A stretch of DNA of 64,000 nucleotides from a virus, in IMG/VR virus record IMGVR_UViG_3300024308_000302, positions 226,158 to 290,157 of that record. The stretch is one strand, 5' to 3'. The translations under genes were made by a program, and so were the position numbers. The notes beneath the pieces are model-generated. The model saw nothing but the letters and a program-made list of their open reading frames with translations, searched no databases and was not told where the DNA came from. Below are positions 99-64,000 of this stretch, in pieces; positions within the stretch are counted from its first letter, which is position 1; every line of letters begins with the position of its first letter.

Positions 99-860
99 TC
101 AAATACAAATCATTTGTAACAACTCAATTTTTTGCTCAATACTCATATCATCAAAATCACTACATTTACTACCATGTGTAGAAATAATAAGCTCATCAAT
201 AACAGATTCAATATTATAATTGAAATCTTTGTCCACGTCTACAATTTTGTTTGCGGCCCAAAAATCTTCTTCAAATAAAGTTTCATTTTTAACTAAATAA
301 GCCTTTTTATTTTTTAAATTAAATGCAACCTTAAATTCTTGCTCTTTTTTAGAAAAAATTGTAATAAATGGAATACAAACAATATCATTTTGTTTATTAA
401 ACTTAAAAGATATATAAATACGACAGTTCGCCTTAAAACCATCAATAAAAGAATTAATAATAAAAAAATCATAAAGAACAAATTCAGTAGTCTTATTGAA
501 AGAATTATTATACAAAACACAATCAGAGTTGAACTTTTCAAGAGACTGAAAAGTTTGTTTAAATATATTATGTTGATTTAATGAATTTAAAAAAAGATCT
601 ATAGTTTGAAAAGAATGTTTATAATTATTCATATCAAAAAGATTTCTTATTTCAGATTCATTATCATTAGGGCCAGACACCCCAATTATGTACCCAGAAT
701 TATGAGAAATTGTCATAGATAAATCTTCTCTACCAGAAGAATTAAAAGCCCTTAAAATACAATGCGAAGGGCCATTATTCAAAGAAAGTTCACTATCAGG
801 GTAATGCCTTGAAAAAAATAAGTTAGCTTGTGCTAAAATAGAAGATTGATTATTTGGCAT
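99..860 (-). CDS. C-terminal MxxI family protein (253 aa)
   Basis: Unknown function. This is one of about fifteen diverged paralogues in the window that share a C-terminal ending with Met at position -4 and a hydrophobic last residue. Here the end is ELLQMICI. The last ~40 residues look helical (NIESVIDELIIS...), as in the other members, while the middle is mixed beta/alpha and not alignable by eye. The ATG is preceded by AGGTG. There is no signal peptide or membrane segment, so it is probably cytoplasmic. It is the first gene of a short minus-strand unit. Confidence 0.8.
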   Translation of the reverse strand: MPNNQSSILAQANLFFSRHYPDSELSLNNGPSHCILRAFNSSGREDLSMTISHNSGYIIGVSGPNDNESEIRNLFDMNNYKHSFQTIDLFLNSLNQHNIFKQTFQSLEKFNSDCVLYNNSFNKTTEFVLYDFFIINSFIDGFKANCRIYISFKFNKQNDIVCIPFITIFSKKEQEFKVAFNLKNKKAYLVKNETLFEEDFWAANKIVDVDKDFNYNIESVIDELIISTHGSKCSDFDDMSIEQKIELLQMICI

Positions 861-2743: not shown

Positions 2744-3514
2744 TTAAATATACATCATTTTAAAAACAGTAATGTCATCATCTACCATATCATCAATCTT
2801 TTTGCCTAACACTGGTAAAGTATATTCAACTTCCATGAAGTCCTTCAGTTTAGAAGCAAATTTATTATCTGGTGTTTTTAACACTTTTCTTACAAAGTTG
2901 ATTCGTCTATATTCTACTTTTTCATTAAAAGTAAAAGAGTAATAGATAACATATTTAAATACATCAGAAAATATGACACTACCTCTTTTTTGTACAGAAT
3001 GACGTAATGTATTGTTTACATCCAACATATCACCAAGCAATTTATTGTAGAAGTCAACGACTTTCAAATCTACATCAGTATAGGTATTAACACTATATGA
3101 CTGTTTAAATGAATCTTTCAAATAAATATCACTAATGTCTATTTCTAAGTCTCGTGGCAATCCATTATTGTAGATTGTAAATGCAGCCGTTAGTAATAAA
3201 GTCTCACCAGTAGGCTCAATTGTCGCTTCATAGACAACAGAAAGAGAGTCAAGACCTGTAGACCAAATACTGGTATTTACAAATAATTCTTTGTAAAAAA
3301 TGTTATGACGATTATCAAATAGATCGTCTAGGTGTTCATATTTATCTACTGGAACAATATTTTTGAGTTGTTCTTTATTAAGTGTTGATAGGTTTTCAAT
3401 AAATATATTTTCTTTTTTCAGGCGAACAATTGCATTATCAAATATTTCTTTTTTCGTTTTAGAAATATATGTACCTAATGTATTAAAATTAGTAAATTTT
3501 TGATTTTTAGTCAT
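2744..3514 (-). CDS. C-terminal MxxI family protein (256 aa)
   Basis: Unknown function. The C terminus is TVFKMMYI, with Met at -4 as in the other family members. The N-terminal third is Lys/Asn-rich and helical (TKKEIFDNAIVRLKKENIF). The centre contains alternating hydrophobic strands, including a Thr/Glu-rich stretch near residues 90-125. There is no signal peptide. It lies 22 bp downstream of another member of the same family (3536-4357), so the two are probably co-expressed. The start ATG has only a weak GAGAG site. Confidence 0.8.
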   Translation of the reverse strand: MTKNQKFTNFNTLGTYISKTKKEIFDNAIVRLKKENIFIENLSTLNKEQLKNIVPVDKYEHLDDLFDNRHNIFYKELFVNTSIWSTGLDSLSVVYEATIEPTGETLLLTAAFTIYNNGLPRDLEIDISDIYLKDSFKQSYSVNTYTDVDLKVVDFYNKLLGDMLDVNNTLRHSVQKRGSVIFSDVFKYVIYYSFTFNEKVEYRRINFVRKVLKTPDNKFASKLKDFMEVEYTLPVLGKKIDDMVDDDITVFKMMYI

Positions 3515-3535: not shown

Positions 3536-4357
3536 TTAAATGTCCATCATTTCTTGTAATGTAAATTCATTTTTCAAATCAGAAATATTTGAAATGTTCA
3601 TTTTTTTAAGTTTAAGGACAGATACAATTGCAGTTTCAATTAATTCATTATCTGCTGACATGAACTCATCATATGTCAACATAAGTTCTTGTCCATACAT
3701 ATAGAAATATAAAGCATATTTTTCAGGTACATGAATATCATTTGCTGGATTAAAAAGAAATTTAATAGAAAATGTATTATTACTGAGCTTAAAAATAGAT
3801 GAAGAATATTCAACTTCAAATAAATCAATAATTTTTTTTGATTCTTCTGGATAAAATTTGTTACTAACAACTGTATTGAATAAACTATCATTTAAAATTA
3901 AAAGAGAATCAATTTTTTTGATTGCTGATAAAATACAATTAAAATTTGCTTTTGAATAATGGTTTTTAATGTCGCCATAAATAAAACCAATATAATGTCT
4001 ACAAAATTCATTAAAAAGATATTCTCCTGAAAGTTTTCCTTTTCGTGAGTCATAAAATGTAACATTAAAAAAATCATAATCTGTATGCTCATTATTAATT
4101 TGTGGCAATAGTTTGCCATCTGTCTCAAAAAGAATATTTAAAGATGGGTCAAGATTGCCAGAAATTTCAAAAATAATTGTTACAGGAAAATCAACTTTGT
4201 TACTCACAAGCGATTCAGACTTAAGAAGAGTCAAAAATTCAGCTAGAATATCTAAATCAATAGTAAATTTTTTCTTAGACTCTGTATTTTTTTTACCAAG
4301 TGCTACATAATTGATTTTATCAATATTAAACAGTGTTGTTTTTTCGATATATTTCAT
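3536..4357 (-). CDS. C-terminal MxxI family protein (273 aa)
   Basis: Family member ending TLQEMMDI. The ATG at 4357 gives MKYIEKTTLFNIDKINYVAL; a TTG 36 bp further upstream is possible, and neither has a clear Shine-Dalgarno, so the start is uncertain. The body alternates short strands and helices with many Phe, Asp and Asn. The last ~40 residues (ELIETAIVSVLKLKKMNIS...) match the helical C-terminal block of the family. It overlaps nothing and precedes the member at 2744. Function unknown. Confidence 0.75.
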   Translation of the reverse strand: MKYIEKTTLFNIDKINYVALGKKNTESKKKFTIDLDILAEFLTLLKSESLVSNKVDFPVTIIFEISGNLDPSLNILFETDGKLLPQINNEHTDYDFFNVTFYDSRKGKLSGEYLFNEFCRHYIGFIYGDIKNHYSKANFNCILSAIKKIDSLLILNDSLFNTVVSNKFYPEESKKIIDLFEVEYSSSIFKLSNNTFSIKFLFNPANDIHVPEKYALYFYMYGQELMLTYDEFMSADNELIETAIVSVLKLKKMNISNISDLKNEFTLQEMMDI

Positions 4358-25343: not shown

Positions 25344-26423
25344 TTAAATATCCATCATCTGTGCCAATAATACAATGTCTTCTGTCAAAACATCATATTC
25401 AATATTGTTTTCTTTCAAAATATTAAAAAGAAACGGAGAAGGATGTTTTAAAATAAGATGCATCATATTGTTTTTGAAGAAATCTAATTGAGCTAAAAAT
25501 ATCGAATCTGGAATTTTAGACAACATATCAACAAAGGTTATTTTAATACCATTTTTTAACACCTCAAATTGAAGATGAACAACATTAAAATTACTGTCAG
25601 GATTTAAAGAATTAATTTCAGTATCATATAGCCAAGAAATAAACTTGAAAGTATTCTTATAAGATTTTATAAATTTATTCCAAATAAGCTCAGAAAATAT
25701 AGATGACAAATTTCTATCATAGAAATAGGCATTAACAACCAATTTTTTATTAGAATAATTAAAATAACATGACGAATGGGGAATAGTTAATAAACTAATA
25801 CTTTTATAATCAACAAGTCTGTTTTCAATCATAAATTTAGTTAAACATGATCCTATATTGAGTCTATTTATATAATGACTAGCATAAGATTCAAGTGCAA
25901 TAGGTACACCAGCCAATGCATAAAATGAAAATTTATCACCATTATCAAAATGAATACTATATTTTTCAATAAAGCCAGCCACAATTTTTTTAGAAATGGT
26001 AACATCCATATAAACGATACCGTTTCTAAAAGCATCTTCTTGTGTTACCATCTCGAATTTGTGAATATCTTTAAATTTATACAGTTCAGAAAGAGATGCT
26101 AAATGAAAAAAACCAAAATTTGCAAGTAAAAAATCCATTTTTTCAGATACTGAGTCATAATTAGAAACATCAATAGACAAGGAAAACTGCATACTCGCCC
26201 AAGCAGCTTCTACTCTACGAGGATCAGTAAGAATAACTTCAATAAGTGCTGATGACTCTTCTAATTCAACAGTAAACTTATTCCCATATATGTTTTCTAC
26301 TATAAAAGTATTATCACAACGGTCATGAGAATATCGCAGTCCAGATGAAAATTCTTTTTTATGGATAAAAACAGATTTATTAATAAAGTCAGATAATTGT
26401 AGTCTTTTTTTGATCTTAATCAT
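25344..26423 (-). CDS. C-terminal MxxI family protein (359 aa)
   Basis: Ends LLAQMMDI. Tandem partner of the 371-aa gene upstream; the two share length, an opening basic segment, a block of strand-rich sequence around residues 30-90, a helix with FLLANFGFFHLASLSELYKF (compare FFHISSFHSLKIF) and a C-terminal HPSPFLFNILKENN (compare YPSETMINFFIDNG). RBS AAGGT. No signal peptide, membrane helix or known catalytic motif. Confidence 0.8.
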   Translation of the reverse strand: MIKIKKRLQLSDFINKSVFIHKKEFSSGLRYSHDRCDNTFIVENIYGNKFTVELEESSALIEVILTDPRRVEAAWASMQFSLSIDVSNYDSVSEKMDFLLANFGFFHLASLSELYKFKDIHKFEMVTQEDAFRNGIVYMDVTISKKIVAGFIEKYSIHFDNGDKFSFYALAGVPIALESYASHYINRLNIGSCLTKFMIENRLVDYKSISLLTIPHSSCYFNYSNKKLVVNAYFYDRNLSSIFSELIWNKFIKSYKNTFKFISWLYDTEINSLNPDSNFNVVHLQFEVLKNGIKITFVDMLSKIPDSIFLAQLDFFKNNMMHLILKHPSPFLFNILKENNIEYDVLTEDIVLLAQMMDI

Positions 26424-38345: not shown

Positions 38346-38533
38346 TCAATCATCATAAGAACATTTCCAACCACCCCATCCAGGGTCCATGCCGGGCATG
38401 GTAGGTCCACAACTGATATCAGAGCCTTTTTTTCGTTGTTCTTCAAGATATCGCCTGCTTTCTTCTGCACGTTTAGCACATTCTTTAGGATTGTTAATAC
38501 ACCATTCTTTTTTTGCACTATCTATATATATGA
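38346..38533 (-). pseudogene. C-terminal part of a gene split by the TnpB element
   Basis: A minus-strand frame free of stops reads IYIDSAKKEWCINNPKECAK, then a charged helix and a Gly/Trp-rich end (PGMDPGWGGWKCSYDD). It has four Cys and no start codon, and abuts the right end of the TnpB element. Joined to the 5' fragment at 40354-40446, it restores a single frame of about 88 residues with an N-terminal membrane anchor and periplasmic-type Cys-rich tail. Confidence 0.7.
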
Positions 38534-38690
38534 ACTACTCCGCCCTGAAGGACGAAGTTTCTTGGTTCGGAACCAAGTCTTCTCGCTGACGTTCATTGTC
38601 AACTTCAAATAAAGCTATCAGCTTCATTCGCACGGTTTCTCTTTTCATCTTTCTTGGCACGTATTGGCCATTTTTTAACTCATGAAAAGC
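38533..38690 (-). ncRNA. putative omega RNA (reRNA) of TnpB
   Basis: TnpB systems make a guide RNA from the 3' end of tnpB and the element's right end. Here the last ~50 codons of tnpB and the hairpin CGTCC-TTCA-GGGCG end at about 38533. The flanking host sequence (minus strand, beginning about TATATATAGATAGTGC) would form the guide. Extent is by analogy; no transcript evidence. Confidence 0.4.
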
Positions 38691-40232
38691 TAATCGAAGA
38701 ACTTCTTCGAATATTCTGTTTCTTATATTCTTGCAAGCATTATTATCTGCATCATCTATATGACCACATGCATTACAAGTAAAACTTCTTCCTTTTCTAA
38801 CTGTATGCTCCACGCATTTACAGTTAGAACAAGTTTTAGAAGTATAGCTTGGTGTGGTCAGATGAACTCTGATGCCTTTGTTATTGGCTTGCTCTTTAAA
38901 CCAATCTTTGATACTTGAAAGTCTCAATAATCTAATTAACTTTGAATATTTTACATTCAAAGTTTCATCTTTAATAAAAGAAGCTTTACATTGAGACAAA
39001 TTCAAATCTTCAAGTACAATATCGGTAATGCCATTTTTAATTAAGTCTTTTAATATTGTCGATATTAAAGACTTGAAATGGAATTCAACACCTAATAATA
39101 GTTTATTGAATTTCTTTTGTTCTATTGTTGATAATTGTTTGAATCCTTTGTTCTCAAAGGATTTTAATTTTTCTACAATTGCTTCTATATAACTTCTATC
39201 ATAATCTTTAAGTTCTTCACGATCATGAAAAGCAATTGTACAAAAATTAGAAGCAACATTTAAATCAATACCACAAATTTGTTTTTTATTTATAACACTA
39301 TCTTTTTCTAATGGTTTAAAATATTCTTTATCATCTTCATAAGTCAAACCAATATCAAGATGATTTTTGCTATTCAAACGGACAGTATGAATAGCATTAA
39401 GGTTAAAATTGTTTATATTTTGGTGATATTTAGAATTGAAGGCTAAAGGAACATGAATGTGTTCCTTACCAATTCTAAAATTATACCAATATTTATACTC
39501 ATTTGATTCATCAATATAAATATGAGAATGTTTAGTTTGACCAATTTGTGGTATTTTCATGTAAGAGCCAGTTGAATATACAATTGGCTCTTTCATATAT
39601 GACAATATTCTTTGTTTTCTATTTATAAGTAATTGTCTAACTCTATTCCAATAAGGTTTTTTCCTTAATGCTTCAATGCTGTTATTGAAATCAATAACAG
39701 ATTGAAGTTTGAGAGGATCTTTAACTTCTAAAGACTTTAATGAAGAATCAAGGCTTGATTCTTCAATAAACATCAACCAGTTCATTATTTTAGTTAAAGA
39801 AGAATTTCTTGAAATAAAGGTGGTGTCTTTGACATCTCCTTTTTTATGTAAAATTTGACCATCTTTTGAAGTTACATTACGTTTATAGTAAGTAATTTTA
39901 AATTCTTTTTGGAGAATAAACTTATTGTTCGAAATAAGTTTATCCATCCAATTAGAATAGAAGTCCATAGATTGATGAAATATTTTTTGAATTTCCCAAG
40001 AATAGAGATTAGGGGTTTTAAATTGCTTAAAACGAGAAGCCAGAACTTTTTTAGAATCTTCATTACAAAGCATTGCTTTGTGATTGAAGATATAGTATGA
40101 AATATTGTTTTTAAAGTTTTTAACAAAATCAAAATGTTGGATCAGGGTATTTTTCTTCTTATGATTGAGAATCGACGAAGAAGAAATACGTTTAGTTTTG
40201 ATATTTTTTTTATCAGAAGATCCAAAAGCCAT
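38535..40232 (-). CDS. tnpB: TnpB RNA-guided endonuclease (565 aa)
   Basis: RuvC-like nuclease guided by an RNA from its own element end. RuvC-I is CGIDLNVASNF (D323) and RuvC-II is DIVLEDLNLS (E408). The zinc ribbon has CSNC (468-471) and CNAC (486-489), and RuvC-III is the DDADNNACKNI segment (~493-503), so all catalytic positions are present. At 565 aa it is longer than the common ~400-aa TnpB, with an extended N-terminal part. The ATG at 40232 has AAGG upstream. Its last codons form the right-end hairpin. It interrupts a membrane-protein gene and could cut uninterrupted alleles, promoting element retention. Confidence 0.88.
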   Translation of the reverse strand: MAFGSSDKKNIKTKRISSSSILNHKKKNTLIQHFDFVKNFKNNISYYIFNHKAMLCNEDSKKVLASRFKQFKTPNLYSWEIQKIFHQSMDFYSNWMDKLISNNKFILQKEFKITYYKRNVTSKDGQILHKKGDVKDTTFISRNSSLTKIMNWLMFIEESSLDSSLKSLEVKDPLKLQSVIDFNNSIEALRKKPYWNRVRQLLINRKQRILSYMKEPIVYSTGSYMKIPQIGQTKHSHIYIDESNEYKYWYNFRIGKEHIHVPLAFNSKYHQNINNFNLNAIHTVRLNSKNHLDIGLTYEDDKEYFKPLEKDSVINKKQICGIDLNVASNFCTIAFHDREELKDYDRSYIEAIVEKLKSFENKGFKQLSTIEQKKFNKLLLGVEFHFKSLISTILKDLIKNGITDIVLEDLNLSQCKASFIKDETLNVKYSKLIRLLRLSSIKDWFKEQANNKGIRVHLTTPSYTSKTCSNCKCVEHTVRKGRSFTCNACGHIDDADNNACKNIRNRIFEEVLRLAFHELKNGQYVPRKMKRETVRMKLIALFEVDNERQREDLVPNQETSSFRAE

Positions 40233-40353
40233 AAGATTCCTTAAAATATATGCTTGCAAATTATAGACCAAGAGAAATAAAAAAGCAAGCAAAAAATGTA
40301 AGAAATCAAAAAAGAAGTAAATTTTTATCCCCGACCTGAAGGAAGAGGTTTTA

Positions 40354-40446
40354 AATTTTATAATTTGATTTCAATAGGATAAAAAGAGCAATAAAACCAC
40401 AAATAAATAAAACAATTAGAACCGATGTAACGATTTTGTTAGTCAT
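40354..40446 (-). pseudogene. N-terminal part of a gene split by the TnpB element
   Basis: Starts MTNKIVTSVLIVLFICGFIA with one membrane helix through LFILLKSNY. Its ATG overlaps the stop of the upstream gene (ATGACTAA). The reading frame then enters the element's left end and hits TAA. The downstream part lies at 38346-38533. The truncated ~30-aa membrane peptide may still be made. Confidence 0.7.
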
Positions 40447-42370: not shown

Positions 42371-42805
42371 TCAGATTGAATTTCTATCAGCACCAATTAG
42401 TGCTTCATTCATGCTGTTAACAACAGAGACTAAAGGATGCTTAATCCAAGATCCAATTGGTCGATAAGTACCCTGTTCAATTTGAACCCCCGGAGCGACA
42501 ATGAAAATCGGAATACCAGATCCAAGAGCAATACCAACTTCAACAAGTGTGCCTTTCAATGGAAAATCATCAGGTTCAACATATACAATCAAACGCTCTG
42601 CTGATTGAATTTCAAGAACAAATTTTAACCAAAGTTCACTCATAAGTTGGTCACATTCAGAAGCTGATTGGAATTCAACTGTTTTATCAATGCTGTCAAT
42701 CCATGTGGAAACAACATGATAACCATCAACATCTCTCAACTTACGCCAAGCTGCTGGACGTTCTGGCAAACTTGCTCGGCTGGCAATGTAAACACCTTTT
42801 CTCAT
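42371..42805 (-). CDS. nucleoside 2-deoxyribosyltransferase-like protein (144 aa)
   Basis: Pattern of the nucleoside deoxyribosyltransferase/SLOG-like fold: the opening strand VYIASRA (5-11), a WRKLRDVDGYHVVSTWID helix-strand, a central strand SAERLIVYVEPDD, and the motif PLKGTLVEVGIALGSGIPI (82-100) with Glu89 at the position of the catalytic or nucleotide-binding acid. Members cleave or transfer N-glycosidic bonds of nucleosides, or bind nucleotides. Its ATG overlaps the stop of the dual-specificity phosphatase gene (ATGA), so they are coupled. It may act in nucleotide scavenging or signal-nucleotide removal; the exact substrate is unknown. Confidence 0.72.
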   Translation of the reverse strand: MRKGVYIASRASLPERPAAWRKLRDVDGYHVVSTWIDSIDKTVEFQSASECDQLMSELWLKFVLEIQSAERLIVYVEPDDFPLKGTLVEVGIALGSGIPIFIVAPGVQIEQGTYRPIGSWIKHPLVSVVNSMNEALIGADRNSI

Positions 42806-43230
42806 TGTAGATTGCTCCTAATCTTGTATCGTTTAACAAGTGTATCATAAACATGAGTATTCATCAATGAGAAATTACCTTTACAAAAAGTATCAAGTTC
42901 CAGTTCATATCCAAGATAGTCTATCATAAAAAGAACAACTGCGGGTGAACGGGAAACACCAGCAGAACAATGGACAATAACCAAAGAAGGATCGCTAAGA
43001 TTTTCAAGCCAATTTAAAATAGAATCAGCTTGATCATCACTAAAAATAACATAATCATGAAATGGATCATCAGTAATAGGTTCTGTAATATCGTGAAAAT
43101 ACAAACGAAGGACATTAGTATGACAATCATCTAACGCCATAAAAGTTTTGCCTTCACTAATGCTGATAATGTTATGTGGCGTATTCAGATCGAATGCCGC
43201 CCAACATGTATAAAATCGTGCTTTTTTCAT
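42802..43230 (-). CDS. dual-specificity/tyrosine phosphatase-like protein (142 aa)
   Basis: The P-loop IVHCSAGVSRSP contains H87-C88-x5-R94-S, the signature of cysteine-dependent phosphatases. Asp47 in FHDITEP is a plausible general acid. The length (142 aa) matches compact dual-specificity phosphatases, which may act on phosphoproteins or on nucleotide and RNA 5' phosphates. ATG at 43230 just beyond the stop of the 79-aa gene suggests coupling. It overlaps the deoxyribosyltransferase-like gene by 4 bp. All key residues are present. Confidence 0.85.
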   Translation of the reverse strand: MKKARFYTCWAAFDLNTPHNIISISEGKTFMALDDCHTNVLRLYFHDITEPITDDPFHDYVIFSDDQADSILNWLENLSDPSLVIVHCSAGVSRSPAVVLFMIDYLGYELELDTFCKGNFSLMNTHVYDTLVKRYKIRSNLQ

Positions 43231-43235
43231 TGGCG

Positions 43236-43475
43236 TTAGCAAATTTTAAACTCTGTAAGTTCGTGTGTTTTCATGAAATCTCTCATGACATGTTTGAACT
43301 TATCACAATATTCATAGTCAGGGTCATCAATTTGATCTTCTTCAAAATCGTAAACTCTAATTTCATATTGTGGTCGTACACTGTCCATAAAATCGCATGC
43401 ATCATTATGATCATAACCAAGACTGACAGCATGAGCCAACAAATCAGAATACTTAAACAAATCAACTTTAGCCAT
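43236..43475 (-). CDS. small hypothetical protein (79 aa)
   Basis: MAKVDLFKYSDLLAHAVSLG; acidic, Asp/Tyr-rich centre (YEIRVYDFEEDQIDDPDYEY) and a Cys-ending helix (ELTEFKIC). TAGGAG RBS. First gene of the four-gene unit with the phosphatase. Function unknown. Confidence 0.7.
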   Translation of the reverse strand: MAKVDLFKYSDLLAHAVSLGYDHNDACDFMDSVRPQYEIRVYDFEEDQIDDPDYEYCDKFKHVMRDFMKTHELTEFKIC

Positions 43476-45184: not shown

Positions 45185-46243
45185 TTAAATAGACATCATC
45201 TTATACAACAACAATGAATGATCAGTGAGTTCACTTGAAGGAATATTTAGTCTTTTAGTAAATCTACTTTTCACTTTTTCAAAAAGATGATTATAAATAT
45301 TTTCATAACCACTCAAAGAAACCAGATCTTGAGTATGATGATTAACTTCCATATAACCAATATCTGGATTTGTAAGCGAAAAATACAAACCAATAGTGCA
45401 TGGAACATCATCGTAGTATACAACCATTATAGAATATAAGTTATCTTCTACTTTGAAATGTTTAGTTGGTCGAATCAAGTTAAAGAATAGTTCATATCTT
45501 TGCATATTATACAATAAACACGAATCAAATCTTAATAGTCCCTCAATAATCTTAACTTGACTTACGAGTTGCTTGCTAAAAACCAATGGAAGTGAATCAA
45601 AAAGTCTTTTTGGTTCAACTCCAAAATTAAAGAAATACATTGCGAAATCATCTGGAGTAATATGCATCAAATCTTTATTTACAAGTCTTTCCTTTTGGAT
45701 ATCAATTACCGTTTTTTTTGACAAAGAGAGTAACTTTTTAAAAGTCATATCATTTTCAAGAAATTCACGAGTTTTAACTAAAATACCAGAATACAGATTT
45801 TCAAAAGAAACATAATCTATCAAACAGTCAGACTTAAAAAAAGAATTTTGATAGAGGATAAATTCAACAACATGATCATCTGATTCTCTTGAAAATGAAA
45901 AACTCAGTGTATCGCCCAAATAGAACTTAACAGTAGCTCTTGGAACGTGGCTATATTGGCTAATTGGAATGGCAATTTGTAATGATTTATTTGCATCCTT
46001 TTTTTCTTTTTCCAAATCGCTGACATAGTAATAGAAATCAATAAGTGTTGAAAGTTGTTTAATTTTTTTAAGATTATAATTGCAACTATGAAATTCAAAA
46101 AATGAAGCAATAAATTTATAATCTCGATCACTACGAGGAAGTGTATAAATTGTAAAATTATTTTTTACAGTGATATCTGCAACATCATCCAAGTTGTAAA
46201 AAGATTGCAATCTATCTAAGCAATCATCATAAAAAGTAGGCAT
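45185..46243 (-). CDS. C-terminal MxxI family protein (352 aa)
   Basis: Ends LLYKMMSI. The start MPTFYDDCLDRLQSFYNLDD closely matches that of the gene at 62936 (MPSFYDEFVDAIQKKY). Shares the block F-x-H-x-x-K-x-x-QL-x-x-L-x-x-[FL]-xY-x-x with the other long members and the C-terminal helix NIYNHLFEKVKSRFTKRLNI. AAGGA RBS. A ribosome could also start nowhere else nearby. Soluble; function unknown. Confidence 0.82.
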   Translation of the reverse strand: MPTFYDDCLDRLQSFYNLDDVADITVKNNFTIYTLPRSDRDYKFIASFFEFHSCNYNLKKIKQLSTLIDFYYYVSDLEKEKKDANKSLQIAIPISQYSHVPRATVKFYLGDTLSFSFSRESDDHVVEFILYQNSFFKSDCLIDYVSFENLYSGILVKTREFLENDMTFKKLLSLSKKTVIDIQKERLVNKDLMHITPDDFAMYFFNFGVEPKRLFDSLPLVFSKQLVSQVKIIEGLLRFDSCLLYNMQRYELFFNLIRPTKHFKVEDNLYSIMVVYYDDVPCTIGLYFSLTNPDIGYMEVNHHTQDLVSLSGYENIYNHLFEKVKSRFTKRLNIPSSELTDHSLLLYKMMSI

Positions 46244-47676: not shown

Positions 47677-48456
47677 TCAAATTAAAGACATTTTCATTAC
47701 ATTCAAGTTTTCATCAAATCCATCATCGAATATACCATTGTCATAAAGCTCTTTCATCTTGAAATAGAAATGAGAGAGTTTGTCATTAGTGTCAAGTTGA
47801 GTGTATTCAAAATAAGGATAAAATTCTAAAAAAATTGGAAATGCTGAATGAATAGTTGCTAAATTTTTACTAAGAAAATTATTAAATAAACAAAACTCAT
47901 CATCTGGTGTTTCATAAGAAGTCCTAATTGAATAATCGTTTGTACTCAAGTCAATATCCCCACGGATTGAATTATGTTTGCTATCCATGTAATAATAGAA
48001 AGTAAATTCATCATCATTATCTGTATAAAAATTTCTTTCTAACAAATAATCTTTGATTTCATTTTTAGAATCAAGATTAATGTCTACACGAATTAAATGT
48101 GCTAAATCAGGAAATTTTAACGAATTATCATATAAACCATATTCAGCAGTGAAAGTTATATATTCAAAATTACCATATGAGTCATAATTAAACTGGATAT
48201 TACCAGCACTTTTACCAATGCCATAAGTAGAAGTTGCCCTGAAATTATGGCCTATAAGACAACTAGTCAAACTAATGTTTTCAAAGTTAATTTCTGGATT
48301 AAACTTTTCGTTAAATTGATTAAAAAGGTGAATAATTCTATGTTTAAAATAGAATTGATGCTCTGACTTCATGAGCACCAATTTAACCTTTTGATCGTTT
48401 AAACAAGAAAAGTCAGGATTTAAAAAATCGAATATAACGGACTCATCAACTTTCAT
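47677..48456 (-). CDS. C-terminal MxxI family protein (259 aa)
   Basis: Ends NVMKMSLI. Short type of the family. The opening MKVDESVIFDFLNPDFSCLN is followed by a Phe/His/Asn-rich mixed region (FKHRIIHLFNQFNEKFNPEI) and a helix before the C terminus (FYFKMKELYDNGIFDDGFDE). AAGGT RBS. Co-directional with the gene at 48472 (15-bp gap). Function unknown. Confidence 0.8.
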   Translation of the reverse strand: MKVDESVIFDFLNPDFSCLNDQKVKLVLMKSEHQFYFKHRIIHLFNQFNEKFNPEINFENISLTSCLIGHNFRATSTYGIGKSAGNIQFNYDSYGNFEYITFTAEYGLYDNSLKFPDLAHLIRVDINLDSKNEIKDYLLERNFYTDNDDEFTFYYYMDSKHNSIRGDIDLSTNDYSIRTSYETPDDEFCLFNNFLSKNLATIHSAFPIFLEFYPYFEYTQLDTNDKLSHFYFKMKELYDNGIFDDGFDENLNVMKMSLI

Positions 48457-54602: not shown

Positions 54603-55322
54603 TTAGATAGACATCATTTCTACCAAAAGTAATGAGGATTTTGTTTTCCTAACCAAATCATATTTTTCTTTAAGATATAGGTCATAAAAACATTTTTCAA
54701 AAGAAAAATGAGGATCTTTATTAATTGAAACATTCTTTTTTAAATGATCAGGTATATCATTAGAATCATTTTTATTAATCGGCATTAAATATTGCACATT
54801 GAACTTGTTGTTAGAAGTATTAAGATTCACCCAAATCAAGCGTCTGTTTAGCTCAAGATCCCACTTATATTTAATAACATTGTCTCTTAATCTTATAGTA
54901 ATAGAAAGTCCATCATAAAATAAAGCTTCAATGTTATTATTATACTCTTCACAACCTACATAATTTGTTGAGATCTCTTTTTCAAGTTTAAACTTTTTGA
55001 TATTTTCAAGAAAGGCATTTTTTATACTGCCATCATTATGAATGAAATGAGATGAAACGTCTGGTGTGATGTCAAAAATCTCCAACTCATTATCAAGACA
55101 ATATCGTACAATAAAGTCAAAGTTATATTGAGTAGTTATAGAAAATTCGAGAGCAGTAGGACCATTAGATGACGATGTACCATACTTAGGATTAACCCTA
55201 ATATCTAAAATGATTAAATCAGAATTAAAAACTAAAGATAATTTTGATTTAATCCAATACTTTTTATCATCATCACTGACAGTCCAAGATGCTTGGTTAA
55301 GTTTTTTTTGTATCTTATCCAT
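54603..55322 (-). CDS. C-terminal MxxI family protein (239 aa)
   Basis: Ends LLVEMMSI. Short type: KIQKKLNQASWTVSDDDKKY start, strand-rich centre (GPTALEFSITTQYNFDFIVR) and a helical end FEKCFYDLYLKEKYDLVRKT matching the family's C-terminal block. GAGGT RBS. Followed at once by the promoter of the 56-aa gene. Function unknown. Confidence 0.8.
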   Translation of the reverse strand: MDKIQKKLNQASWTVSDDDKKYWIKSKLSLVFNSDLIILDIRVNPKYGTSSSNGPTALEFSITTQYNFDFIVRYCLDNELEIFDITPDVSSHFIHNDGSIKNAFLENIKKFKLEKEISTNYVGCEEYNNNIEALFYDGLSITIRLRDNVIKYKWDLELNRRLIWVNLNTSNNKFNVQYLMPINKNDSNDIPDHLKKNVSINKDPHFSFEKCFYDLYLKEKYDLVRKTKSSLLLVEMMSI

Positions 55323-58681: not shown

Positions 58682-59719
58682 TTAATAATTTATCATATGA
58701 CACAACAAAACTTGATTAGTAGTTATATCTTCCATATTGATGTTTTCAAGATTTAATGTGTTAACTATTGTATCAAAAATCTTTGTTCTAAAAGTGTCAT
58801 AAACTACAGAGATATTATCAATAGACACAAAAACACCTTTATTATTACAGCTATAATTAAAGCCTGATTCTGATAAGTTAATTGATATAGTTTCATATTT
58901 ATTGTTTGAAAATTTAATAGTATATAGTGTAGAATCAACTAAAAATCTACTTACTTTTTCATTACGTTTTACGAAATAAGAAAAACAAGAATCACCGGAT
59001 ATATAATGATAGAATTGAATGACAGAAATTAGTTGAAGTATTTCATGAGCTTTATGATAACCAAGAACAGACAATAAGAATGACTTAAATTTACTGAAGG
59101 ATAGTTCAACAGTAGAATCATGAGCTATGAATGATATTGAATTTGAAGAAATATTTTGAACAAAATCATTCTTCCTGAAAATTTCAAAATAATCCTCAAA
59201 AATTGTATTGTAACAAACAAGCACATCTGAAAATTTAATTTCTTTAATCTTAGGATTTTTTAAATAATTTTTGATAACTTCCATATAAGTTTTATGAAGT
59301 AATGAATCATCCATAATTTGTTCTCTATTAAAATTTCTAAGTTCAATTGTAAATATGATTTCACCATTTTCTGGAATATATATTTTAGAATTCAAACTAC
59401 CAAGATAAATATAGAAATCATTATTAATACGTTGAATCATATATAAGTTCGAATAACTAGAACTACCATTTAAAAGTTTATGAAGGATTCGTATCGAGCT
59501 TAATTGAAGAAAATATCTATAATTGAAAGGAAATATCTCATTAATCCCTTTTAAGAAGGACACAATATCTGAATGACAATCCTTAATGAAATAAAGTTCT
59601 GAAGTAGGTTTTAATTTAACAATTCGCTGTTCATTATTATTTAACTGGCGATTAAAGTAATCAGAACCAAATAAAGATTCAACCATAAGAATGATTTGCT
59701 GATGATAATTTGTATTCAT
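58682..59719 (-). CDS. C-terminal MxxI family protein (345 aa)
   Basis: Ends LLCHMINY, with Met at -4. ATG at 59719 with AAGG upstream (MNTNYHQQIILMVESLFGSD). It has the long-type blocks: an early FPFNYRYFLQLSSIRILHKL (compare the DYRK-x-x-QIKNL block of the gene at 20553) and a C-terminal helix VVYDTFRTKIFDTIVNTLNL. No membrane helix in the mature frame. Function unknown. Confidence 0.8.
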   Translation of the reverse strand: MNTNYHQQIILMVESLFGSDYFNRQLNNNEQRIVKLKPTSELYFIKDCHSDIVSFLKGINEIFPFNYRYFLQLSSIRILHKLLNGSSSYSNLYMIQRINNDFYIYLGSLNSKIYIPENGEIIFTIELRNFNREQIMDDSLLHKTYMEVIKNYLKNPKIKEIKFSDVLVCYNTIFEDYFEIFRKNDFVQNISSNSISFIAHDSTVELSFSKFKSFLLSVLGYHKAHEILQLISVIQFYHYISGDSCFSYFVKRNEKVSRFLVDSTLYTIKFSNNKYETISINLSESGFNYSCNNKGVFVSIDNISVVYDTFRTKIFDTIVNTLNLENINMEDITTNQVLLCHMINY

Positions 59720-59809
59720 AATAAAAACCTTGAAAAGAGTGCAAATATTATACATATAAGTTGAACAAGAGTAAACAAAAAATTCCAAAAATAAGAGATA
59801 ATTCATAAA

Positions 59810-62935: not shown

Positions 62936-64000
62936 TTAAATTTTAAGCATTTGATATAGTTCAATAGATTTATTACAAAGGTCTTGATTTTCTATTCCAG
63001 TAACAGCAGAAATCTTATCCAACAAGGATTTTTTCAAGTGCTCATAAATATTATCAATACCACGAATACAAAGTGGTTCATAATCAAATTCTTCTGTCCT
63101 ACATTCATAAACCAAACAATCAGAATGGGTAGTAATATATAGGTCTTGCCATCCATTAATTTTTTGATTATGTGTGAAAGTTATATTGTATAAATAATGT
63201 TCATCTCGAAATTTATTTATTACATCTTGAAATCTGATTTCAATTTTAAATTTTTTTGAATAAAAATCTAAATCATCCAATTGTTCTTTAAAAACAAGAA
63301 TACTAAAAATTTCATTTAGTTTATTCAAATGATCATTACTTAAAAATGGGCTAAGGTATTTTTGAACTTTATAATTTGTGATATCAAATTCATGAGACTT
63401 AGATCCATTAATTAAATCCAAGTTAACAATAGAATCCGATTCGTTTTTTTTATGAAATAAATTATTAAATTCTGTAGCTGTATAATATGAAATCTTGTTA
63501 TCAACAATTATAGAATTAATAAACTCTTTTAAATCTAAGTTCATAGTATGAATGAAAGACTTAGCTGTGATATTGGCAGGCAATAAAGCATTAAGTGTAG
63601 TTAATCTTTCTTGATACGTTTTTTCATAAGCTGTTCCATCTATAAGTTCATTAAGAGAAAACTCATCAAAATGAAATCTAATTTTCAGATTACTTAAACT
63701 TGTTTTATTAAATACTGCAAACATAAGCCTTGGTCCATGACTAAACATAACATTCTTATTAGTGTAAATAATTTTAACTTTAAATGATTGTTTAGTCTCG
63801 CCCTTCTGAATATAATCAAGAAGCCACATAATAGATTCTAATTGTGCAATTTTATGACTGTCAAGATTGAAAAATAGAGAAACAATTTCTTCAAATCTAT
63901 GATCATATTCAAAATGATAAACACGCGGCAATACTTCTGAATCATCATGTTCATATTTTTTTTGAATTGCATCTACAAATTCATCATAAAAAGATGGCAT
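62936..64000 (-). CDS. C-terminal MxxI family protein (354 aa)
   Basis: Ends ELYQMLKI; starts MPSFYDEFVDAIQKKYEHDD with the ATG at the last base of the window, so the RBS is outside but the length and start match the gene at 45185. It has the full long-type architecture: F-x-LDSHK-x-AQLESIMWLLDY, the AYEKTYQERL centre, a YLSPFLSNDHLNKL block and the C-terminal helix NIYEHLKKSLLDKI. Function unknown. Confidence 0.82.
   Translation of the reverse strand: MPSFYDEFVDAIQKKYEHDDSEVLPRVYHFEYDHRFEEIVSLFFNLDSHKIAQLESIMWLLDYIQKGETKQSFKVKIIYTNKNVMFSHGPRLMFAVFNKTSLSNLKIRFHFDEFSLNELIDGTAYEKTYQERLTTLNALLPANITAKSFIHTMNLDLKEFINSIIVDNKISYYTATEFNNLFHKKNESDSIVNLDLINGSKSHEFDITNYKVQKYLSPFLSNDHLNKLNEIFSILVFKEQLDDLDFYSKKFKIEIRFQDVINKFRDEHYLYNITFTHNQKINGWQDLYITTHSDCLVYECRTEEFDYEPLCIRGIDNIYEHLKKSLLDKISAVTGIENQDLCNKSIELYQMLKI

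What the first reader, a model, noticed from the sequence alone, without database searches (positions are those of the whole stretch)
38346..40446. TnpB-only element splits a small membrane-protein gene whose frame can be restored
Left of the element a gene starts MTNKIVTSVLIVLFICGFIA...KSNY; right of it the same strand reads IYIDSAKKEWCINN...WKCSYDD. Removing 38533-~40356 rejoins them in frame as one ~88-residue Cys-rich, membrane-anchored protein. The insertion looks recent because the downstream half has no stop. This defines both the empty site and the TnpB target.
Basis: seen in the sequence. Interest (0 to 1): 0.7.

Follow-up and report, generated by a model that had tools for sequence, protein, structure and literature searches.

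The report
TnpB element splitting a phage gene
A small selfish DNA element that carries an RNA-guided DNA-cutting enzyme (TnpB) sits inside a tiny membrane-protein gene of a large bacterial virus; this is an ordinary kind of insertion, and the exact point where the gene would be rejoined could only be fixed at one of its two ends.

Summary
The element is real. A 565-aa TnpB (38535-40232, minus strand; Pfam Cas12f1-like_TNB, E 2e-15) lies between two subterminal hairpins that are 86% identical, with a strong omega-RNA-like fold at its 3' end. The sequence right of it (38346-38529) is a true coding frame (16.8 bits; median for genuine genes 15.2) without a start codon. Left of it, ATG 40446 overlaps the upstream gene by 8 nt and opens a single transmembrane segment. 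So a small gene was very probably split.

The right end is 38530 (TTCAT|), inferred from guide/cleavage-site pairing shared with comparator elements and checked on one empty site in mycobacteriophages. The left end stays open: six candidate cuts obey the rule, three restore the frame, the most TAM-like being TTTAT| at 40379 (83-aa product). 'KSNY' as part of the protein is therefore doubtful.

No relative with an intact gene was found, so empty site and target are predictions. A second TnpB element in the same record, with IS608-type ends, also splits an ORF in frame. Ordinary TnpB-only biology; the TnpB itself is unusually divergent.

The parts
40380..40446 (-). 5' part of the split gene (ATG 40446, transmembrane segment MTNKIVTSVLIVLFICGFIALF...); extends to 40360 if the left end lies there
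   Evidence: start overlaps the end of the upstream ORF by 8 nt (ATGACTAA)
40360..40379 (-). zone of the left cleavage site; rule-obeying candidates TTTAT| (last flank base 40379, in frame) and ATTAT| (40360, out of frame); further T-rich ones up to 40393
40329..40348 (-). left subterminal hairpin CCTCTTCC-TTCA-GGTCGGGG; guide tetranucleotide G_L AAAA at 40349-40352
   Evidence: 86% identical to the right hairpin
38535..40232 (-). TnpB, 565 aa, ATG 40232 with AAGGA five bases before; RuvC motifs GIDLN, VLEDL, DADNN and zinc ribbon CSNC/CNAC present; its TAG stop lies in the right end
38530..38680 (-). predicted omega RNA scaffold (overlaps the tnpB 3' end), multi-stem, closing stem AUGAA/UUCAU
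   Evidence: z -4.1, none of 200 shuffles as stable
38538..38557 (-). right subterminal hairpin CTTCGTCC-TTCA-GGGCGGAG; G_R GAAA at 38558-38561
38530..38533 (-). right cleavage site C_R TCAT; element ends at 38530
   Evidence: pairs with G_R as in Job42, pNOB8, Haladaptatus
38510..38529 (-). predicted guide ATATATAGATAGTGCAAAAA, first bases of the interrupted gene's 3' part
   Evidence: inference from TnpB biology (PMC8612924); 16-nt core exact only here in the record
38346..38529 (-). 3' part of the split gene, start-less coding frame ...YIDSAKKEWCINNPKECAKRAEESRRYLEEQRKKGSDISCGPTMPGMDPGWGGWKCSYDD*

Best explanation
An IS200/IS605-type, TnpB-only (non-autonomous) transposon inserted into a roughly 80-90-codon gene for a single-pass membrane protein with a Cys-rich tail, in a large phage. 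Shown: TnpB with the catalytic motifs present, similar hairpins at both ends, a right end at 38530 by guide/cleavage-site pairing, a start-less coding half to its right and a short membrane-anchored start to its left. Inferred: it was mobilised in trans by a Y1 TnpA of another element, by single-strand peel-and-paste; its 3' transcript gives an omega RNA whose guide begins at 38529, so TnpB cuts copies of the gene that lack the element (TAM plus ATATATAGATAGTGC...) and the break is repaired from an occupied copy. The gene product is lost while the element stays. The left cut is most likely TTTAT| (last flank base 40379), which restores an 83-codon gene, but this is not shown.
For: TnpB: PF07282 E 2.1e-15, NF040570 guided_TnpB 5e-16 though below its cut-off, zinc ribbon and third RuvC motif aligned with solved TnpB/Cas12 chains. 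Ends: LE and RE hairpins 86% identical; guide rule 3/3 at RE, varying together with comparators GAAG/TCAC, GAAT/TCAA, AATG/TTAC; the same rule gives the right end of a TnpB-only element in mycobacteriophage Job42, confirmed by the empty site in ShiLan. omega-RNA-like fold z -4.1. Downstream frame coding and start-less. No Y1 transposase found in the 290-kb record.
Against: No homologue of the intact gene and no close TnpB relative, so neither boundary is confirmed by an empty site of this element. The upstream 29 codons carry almost no coding signal (1.1 bits). No left cut at the usual distance (18-22 nt from the hairpin foot) obeys the rule fully, and the left hairpin is imperfect. The guide rule has exceptions (H. 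salinisoli 2 of 3; several pAt1 hairpins; Job42's left end 2 of 3 with a G-T wobble).
Confidence: 0.78

Rival explanations
1. One reading: precise excision of about 38533-40356/40360 restores an 88-90-residue protein reading KSNY-IYID.
For: Removing 38533-40360 does read through.
Against: The coordinates as written frameshift; the readable version leaves CAT of the right end behind, against the right end at 38530 inferred from guide pairing and comparators.
Confidence: 0.08
2. The element sits at ATTAT| (flank ends 40360); the halves are out of register by this cut, and the gene changed frame before or after insertion (for example one TA unit of the TATATATA tract was lost).
For: ATTAT is the nearest rule-obeying cut (11 nt from the hairpin foot); the join TTAT|ATATATAG makes a (TA)5 tract in which one more TA would restore the frame (from the sequence).
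Against: Needs an extra indel; 11 nt is shorter than in IS608 (19), Job42 (18) or the second element here (22).
Confidence: 0.25
3. The two halves never were one gene: a short membrane-peptide ORF on the left and a remnant of another gene on the right, with a deletion at the site.
For: Upstream half has weak coding signal; no homologue shows the union.
Against: The right half is start-less, coding, on the same strand and directly abuts the element; a simple insertion explains both.
Confidence: 0.15
4. A CRISPR type V effector, or an IStron whose RNA splices out, rather than a TnpB element.
For: Best solved-structure hit is UnCas12m4a and Cas12f2 is the second-best NCBIfam match; 565 aa is long for TnpB.
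Against: No repeat array nearby, no group I intron match in Rfam, tnpB stop inside a transposon-type right end.
Confidence: 0.03

Closest known systems
TnpB-only element of mycobacteriophages Job42 and ShiLan (Cheoctovirus)
   Same: Phage-borne, tnpB without tnpA, ending at an 8-bp hairpin with TTCA loop; right cleavage site pairs with the tetranucleotide before the hairpin; precise empty site
   Different: Found by its right end, not by protein similarity; ends TTAC|/TCAA|; at the Job42 site it lies beside the tape-measure gene
IS608 and ISDra2 (IS200/IS605 family)
   Same: Subterminal hairpins, guide/cleavage tetranucleotides, RNA from the right end with guide from the flank, T-rich target motif (PMC5934647, PMC8612924)
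   Different: No tnpA; TnpB 565 aa against 408; left cut not fixed
Sulfolobus islandicus IS605-type TnpB7 and the pNOB8 TnpB
   Same: S. islandicus right end closes with TTCAC followed by the guide (PMC11043419); pNOB8 has the same hairpin, GGAGTAGCTCAC and the tnpB stop in the right end
   Different: Archaeal hosts; TnpB7 target TTTAA; proteins not close

Membership tests
IS200/IS605 superfamily, TnpB-only (IS1341-type) element | tnpB with RuvC D/E/D and zinc ribbon | tested here: met
   first two RuvC motifs read from the sequence
IS200/IS605 superfamily, TnpB-only (IS1341-type) element | no tnpA in the element | tested here: met
   none found in the record either
IS200/IS605 superfamily, TnpB-only (IS1341-type) element | subterminal hairpins with guide tetranucleotides pairing with the cleavage sites | tested here: inconclusive
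   RE met at one position only, linker 4; LE rule met at six positions, so not diagnostic
IS200/IS605 superfamily, TnpB-only (IS1341-type) element | insertion without target duplication, precise empty site | tested here: inconclusive
   sought, but no relative without the element was found
IS200/IS605 superfamily, TnpB-only (IS1341-type) element | structured omega RNA at the tnpB 3' end with guide from the flank | tested here: inconclusive
   predicted structure strong (z -4.1); transcription and processing not testable here
IStron (IS with group I intron) | group I intron in the element | tested here: not met
   gathering thresholds
CRISPR-Cas type V | adjacent repeat-spacer array | tested here: not met
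   34-44 kb

The most novel reading that the evidence does not exclude
The divergent 565-aa TnpB acts between co-infecting phages as an RNA-guided homing nuclease: its guide targets intact alleles of a small phage membrane-protein gene, so that the element spreads among related giant phages by cutting and conversion, together with a second, unrelated TnpB element in another small gene of the same genome.
Probability: 0.2. Interest if true: 0.5.

Novelty: new member of a known kind. Interest (0 to 1): 0.25.

Why it matters
It adds a very divergent phage TnpB with a readable right end, guide and probable target gene, and shows that IS608-type guide/cleavage pairing can place the right end of a TnpB element where no relatives exist. 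It also shows why frame restoration alone should not be used to place such ends in AT-rich DNA.

Tried and rejected
Searches for the intact gene or its neighbours: viral contigs with the joined 90-aa peptide, the upstream neighbour, TnpB, the lipoprotein, the phosphatase, the second host gene and a degenerate W-C-x-N-N-P-x-E-C-A pattern: only one remote phosphatase without synteny and one spurious match. The tools state that very near records may be left out. TnpB in genome contigs: none. Right-end 19/20-mers: matches in viral contigs were coding coincidences (VNYSALK); two of three genome matches look like real ends without an intact TnpB. Alternative genetic code: stop usage looks standard. 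No paralogue of the split gene in the 290 kb. My first assumption that the right end closes at TTCA (38531) was dropped after the pairing test.

Full report
Setting. The window is the last 64 kb of a 290,157-base virus record. It has standard-looking stop usage, small genes and no large terminase detectable with PF03237, so it is probably a fragment of a larger phage. No relative with synteny was found.

The element. On the minus strand a 565-aa TnpB runs from ATG 40232 (AAGGA five bases before) to a TAG at 38535. Pfam gives Cas12f1-like_TNB at E 2.1e-15; NCBIfam guided_TnpB 5e-16, below its curated cut-off; the best solved relatives are UnCas12m4a and several Cas12f/TnpB chains, aligned over the C-terminal part only. 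The closest matches in 50,697 phage and 72,556 plasmid records are 22-44% identical over less than half of its length, and close-relative scans of viral and genome contigs found none. Two hairpins of the form 8+8 with a TTCA loop stand at both ends (40329-40348 and 38538-38557; the left one imperfect), 86% identical as direct repeats. The 3' 170 nt fold as RNA with z -4.1, closing with AUGAA/UUCAU. No Y1 TnpA was found in the record, no CRISPR array nearby, no group I intron.

Right end. In IS608 a tetranucleotide just 5' of each hairpin pairs with the cleavage site (G_R GAAT/C_R TCAA, G_L AAAG/C_L TTAC; PMC5934647). The same hairpin form with similar spacing occurs in mycobacteriophages Job42/ShiLan (GAAT/TCAA), pNOB8 and Haladaptatus halobius (GAAG/TCAC) and Haladaptatus QDMS2 (AATG/TTAC); the window has GAAA/TCAT, and the second element of this record GAAT/TCAA. 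The last position changes together with its partner in these; H. salinisoli fits at two of three positions, and some hairpins on plasmid pAt1 do not fit. Job42 carries its element where ShiLan has none; the alignment fits cuts after TTAC and TCAA (a one-base shift scores the same). The window element is therefore taken to end at 38530.

Left end and frame. The left guide is AAAA, predicting TTNT. In this AT-rich DNA six cuts within 45 nt satisfy it (last flank bases 40360, 40379, 40381, 40382, 40391, 40393), at 11, 30, 32, 33, 42 and 44 nt from the hairpin, against 19 nt in IS608 (own knowledge), 18 in Job42 and 22 in the second element. With the right end at 38530, cuts at 40379 and 40382 restore the frame and 40360 and 40381 do not; by the same arithmetic 40391 does and 40393 does not. 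TTTAT at 40379 is the most TAM-like and gives MTNKIVTSVLIVLFICGFIALFI-YIDSAKKEWCINN...KCSYDD, 83 residues. This is a preference, not a demonstration: with several candidates some in-frame cut is expected by chance.

The split gene. The 60 codons right of the element score 16.8 bits with the record's own codon usage, against a median of 15.2 for 60-codon windows of long ORFs and 10.9 for the 99th percentile of wrong frames; the other five frames are negative. There is no start codon in this frame near its beginning. On the left, the ORF starts 8 nt before the end of the upstream gene and codes one transmembrane segment, but 29 codons are too few to score (1.1 bits). One interrupted gene is the simplest reading. 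The product would be a single-pass membrane protein with four cysteines in its tail; no family matches it.

A second case. Near G000:C1:112.2-113.4 kb a 356-aa canonical TnpB (NF040570, 5e-58) has exact IS608-type tetranucleotides at both ends. Removing the 1185 nt between TTAC| and TCAA| joins MTLVTLND...REAFT to YLMCLFWKGHF... in frame; the downstream part contains a TGA followed by 51 codons that still score as coding (10.8 bits). So two unrelated TnpB-only elements appear to split small ORFs here, the second one older or decayed.

How it works. From established TnpB biology (PMC8612924): the element leaves by single-strand excision when a TnpA is available, and TnpB with an RNA from the right end cuts the resealed or empty site next to the TAM, so that repair from an occupied copy restores the element. 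The guide here would begin ATATATAGATAGTGC; its first 16 nt occur exactly once in the record. None of these activities was tested.

Verdict. Split gene and TnpB element: likely. Exact frame restoration and recency: open. Ordinary kind, with a divergent protein.

Noticed in passing
L004 (G000:C1:110738-113950): Second TnpB-only element with exact IS608-type ends (TTAC|, TCAA|; 1185 nt) splitting an ORF in frame; a TGA interrupts the downstream half, whose remaining 51 codons still look coding.
   Followed up: partly
window 99-860, 2744-3514, 3536-4357, 25344-26423, 45185-46243, 47677-48456, 54603-55322, 58682-59806, 62936-64000 and 25 further ORFs of the record: 34 of 209 ORFs of at least 150 aa end in M-x(0,1)-x-[ILVFY] at the very C terminus (LLYKMMSI, ITVFKMMYI, IELLQMICI); internal six-residue stretches of the same proteins match about 3 times (maximum 9 in 200 draws). 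Looks like a shared C-terminal tag on diverse proteins, perhaps for sorting or packaging, or traces of a large paralogous family.
   Followed up: partly
whole record G000:C1: 290 kb without a PF03237 match and with no stop-to-stop frame above 666 aa; probably the accessory part of a larger phage genome.
   Followed up: no
window 42371-43242: Adjacent genes resembling nucleoside 2-deoxyribosyltransferase (PF05014, below cut-off) and a dual-specificity phosphatase (phrog_5614, 7e-39).
   Followed up: partly
L040, L041, L044, L045: Mycobacteriophages Job42 and ShiLan carry the same TnpB element at different sites, so each can serve as empty-site control; Job42 at the ShiLan site keeps a 23-bp match to the element's first bases, unexplained.
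   Followed up: partly
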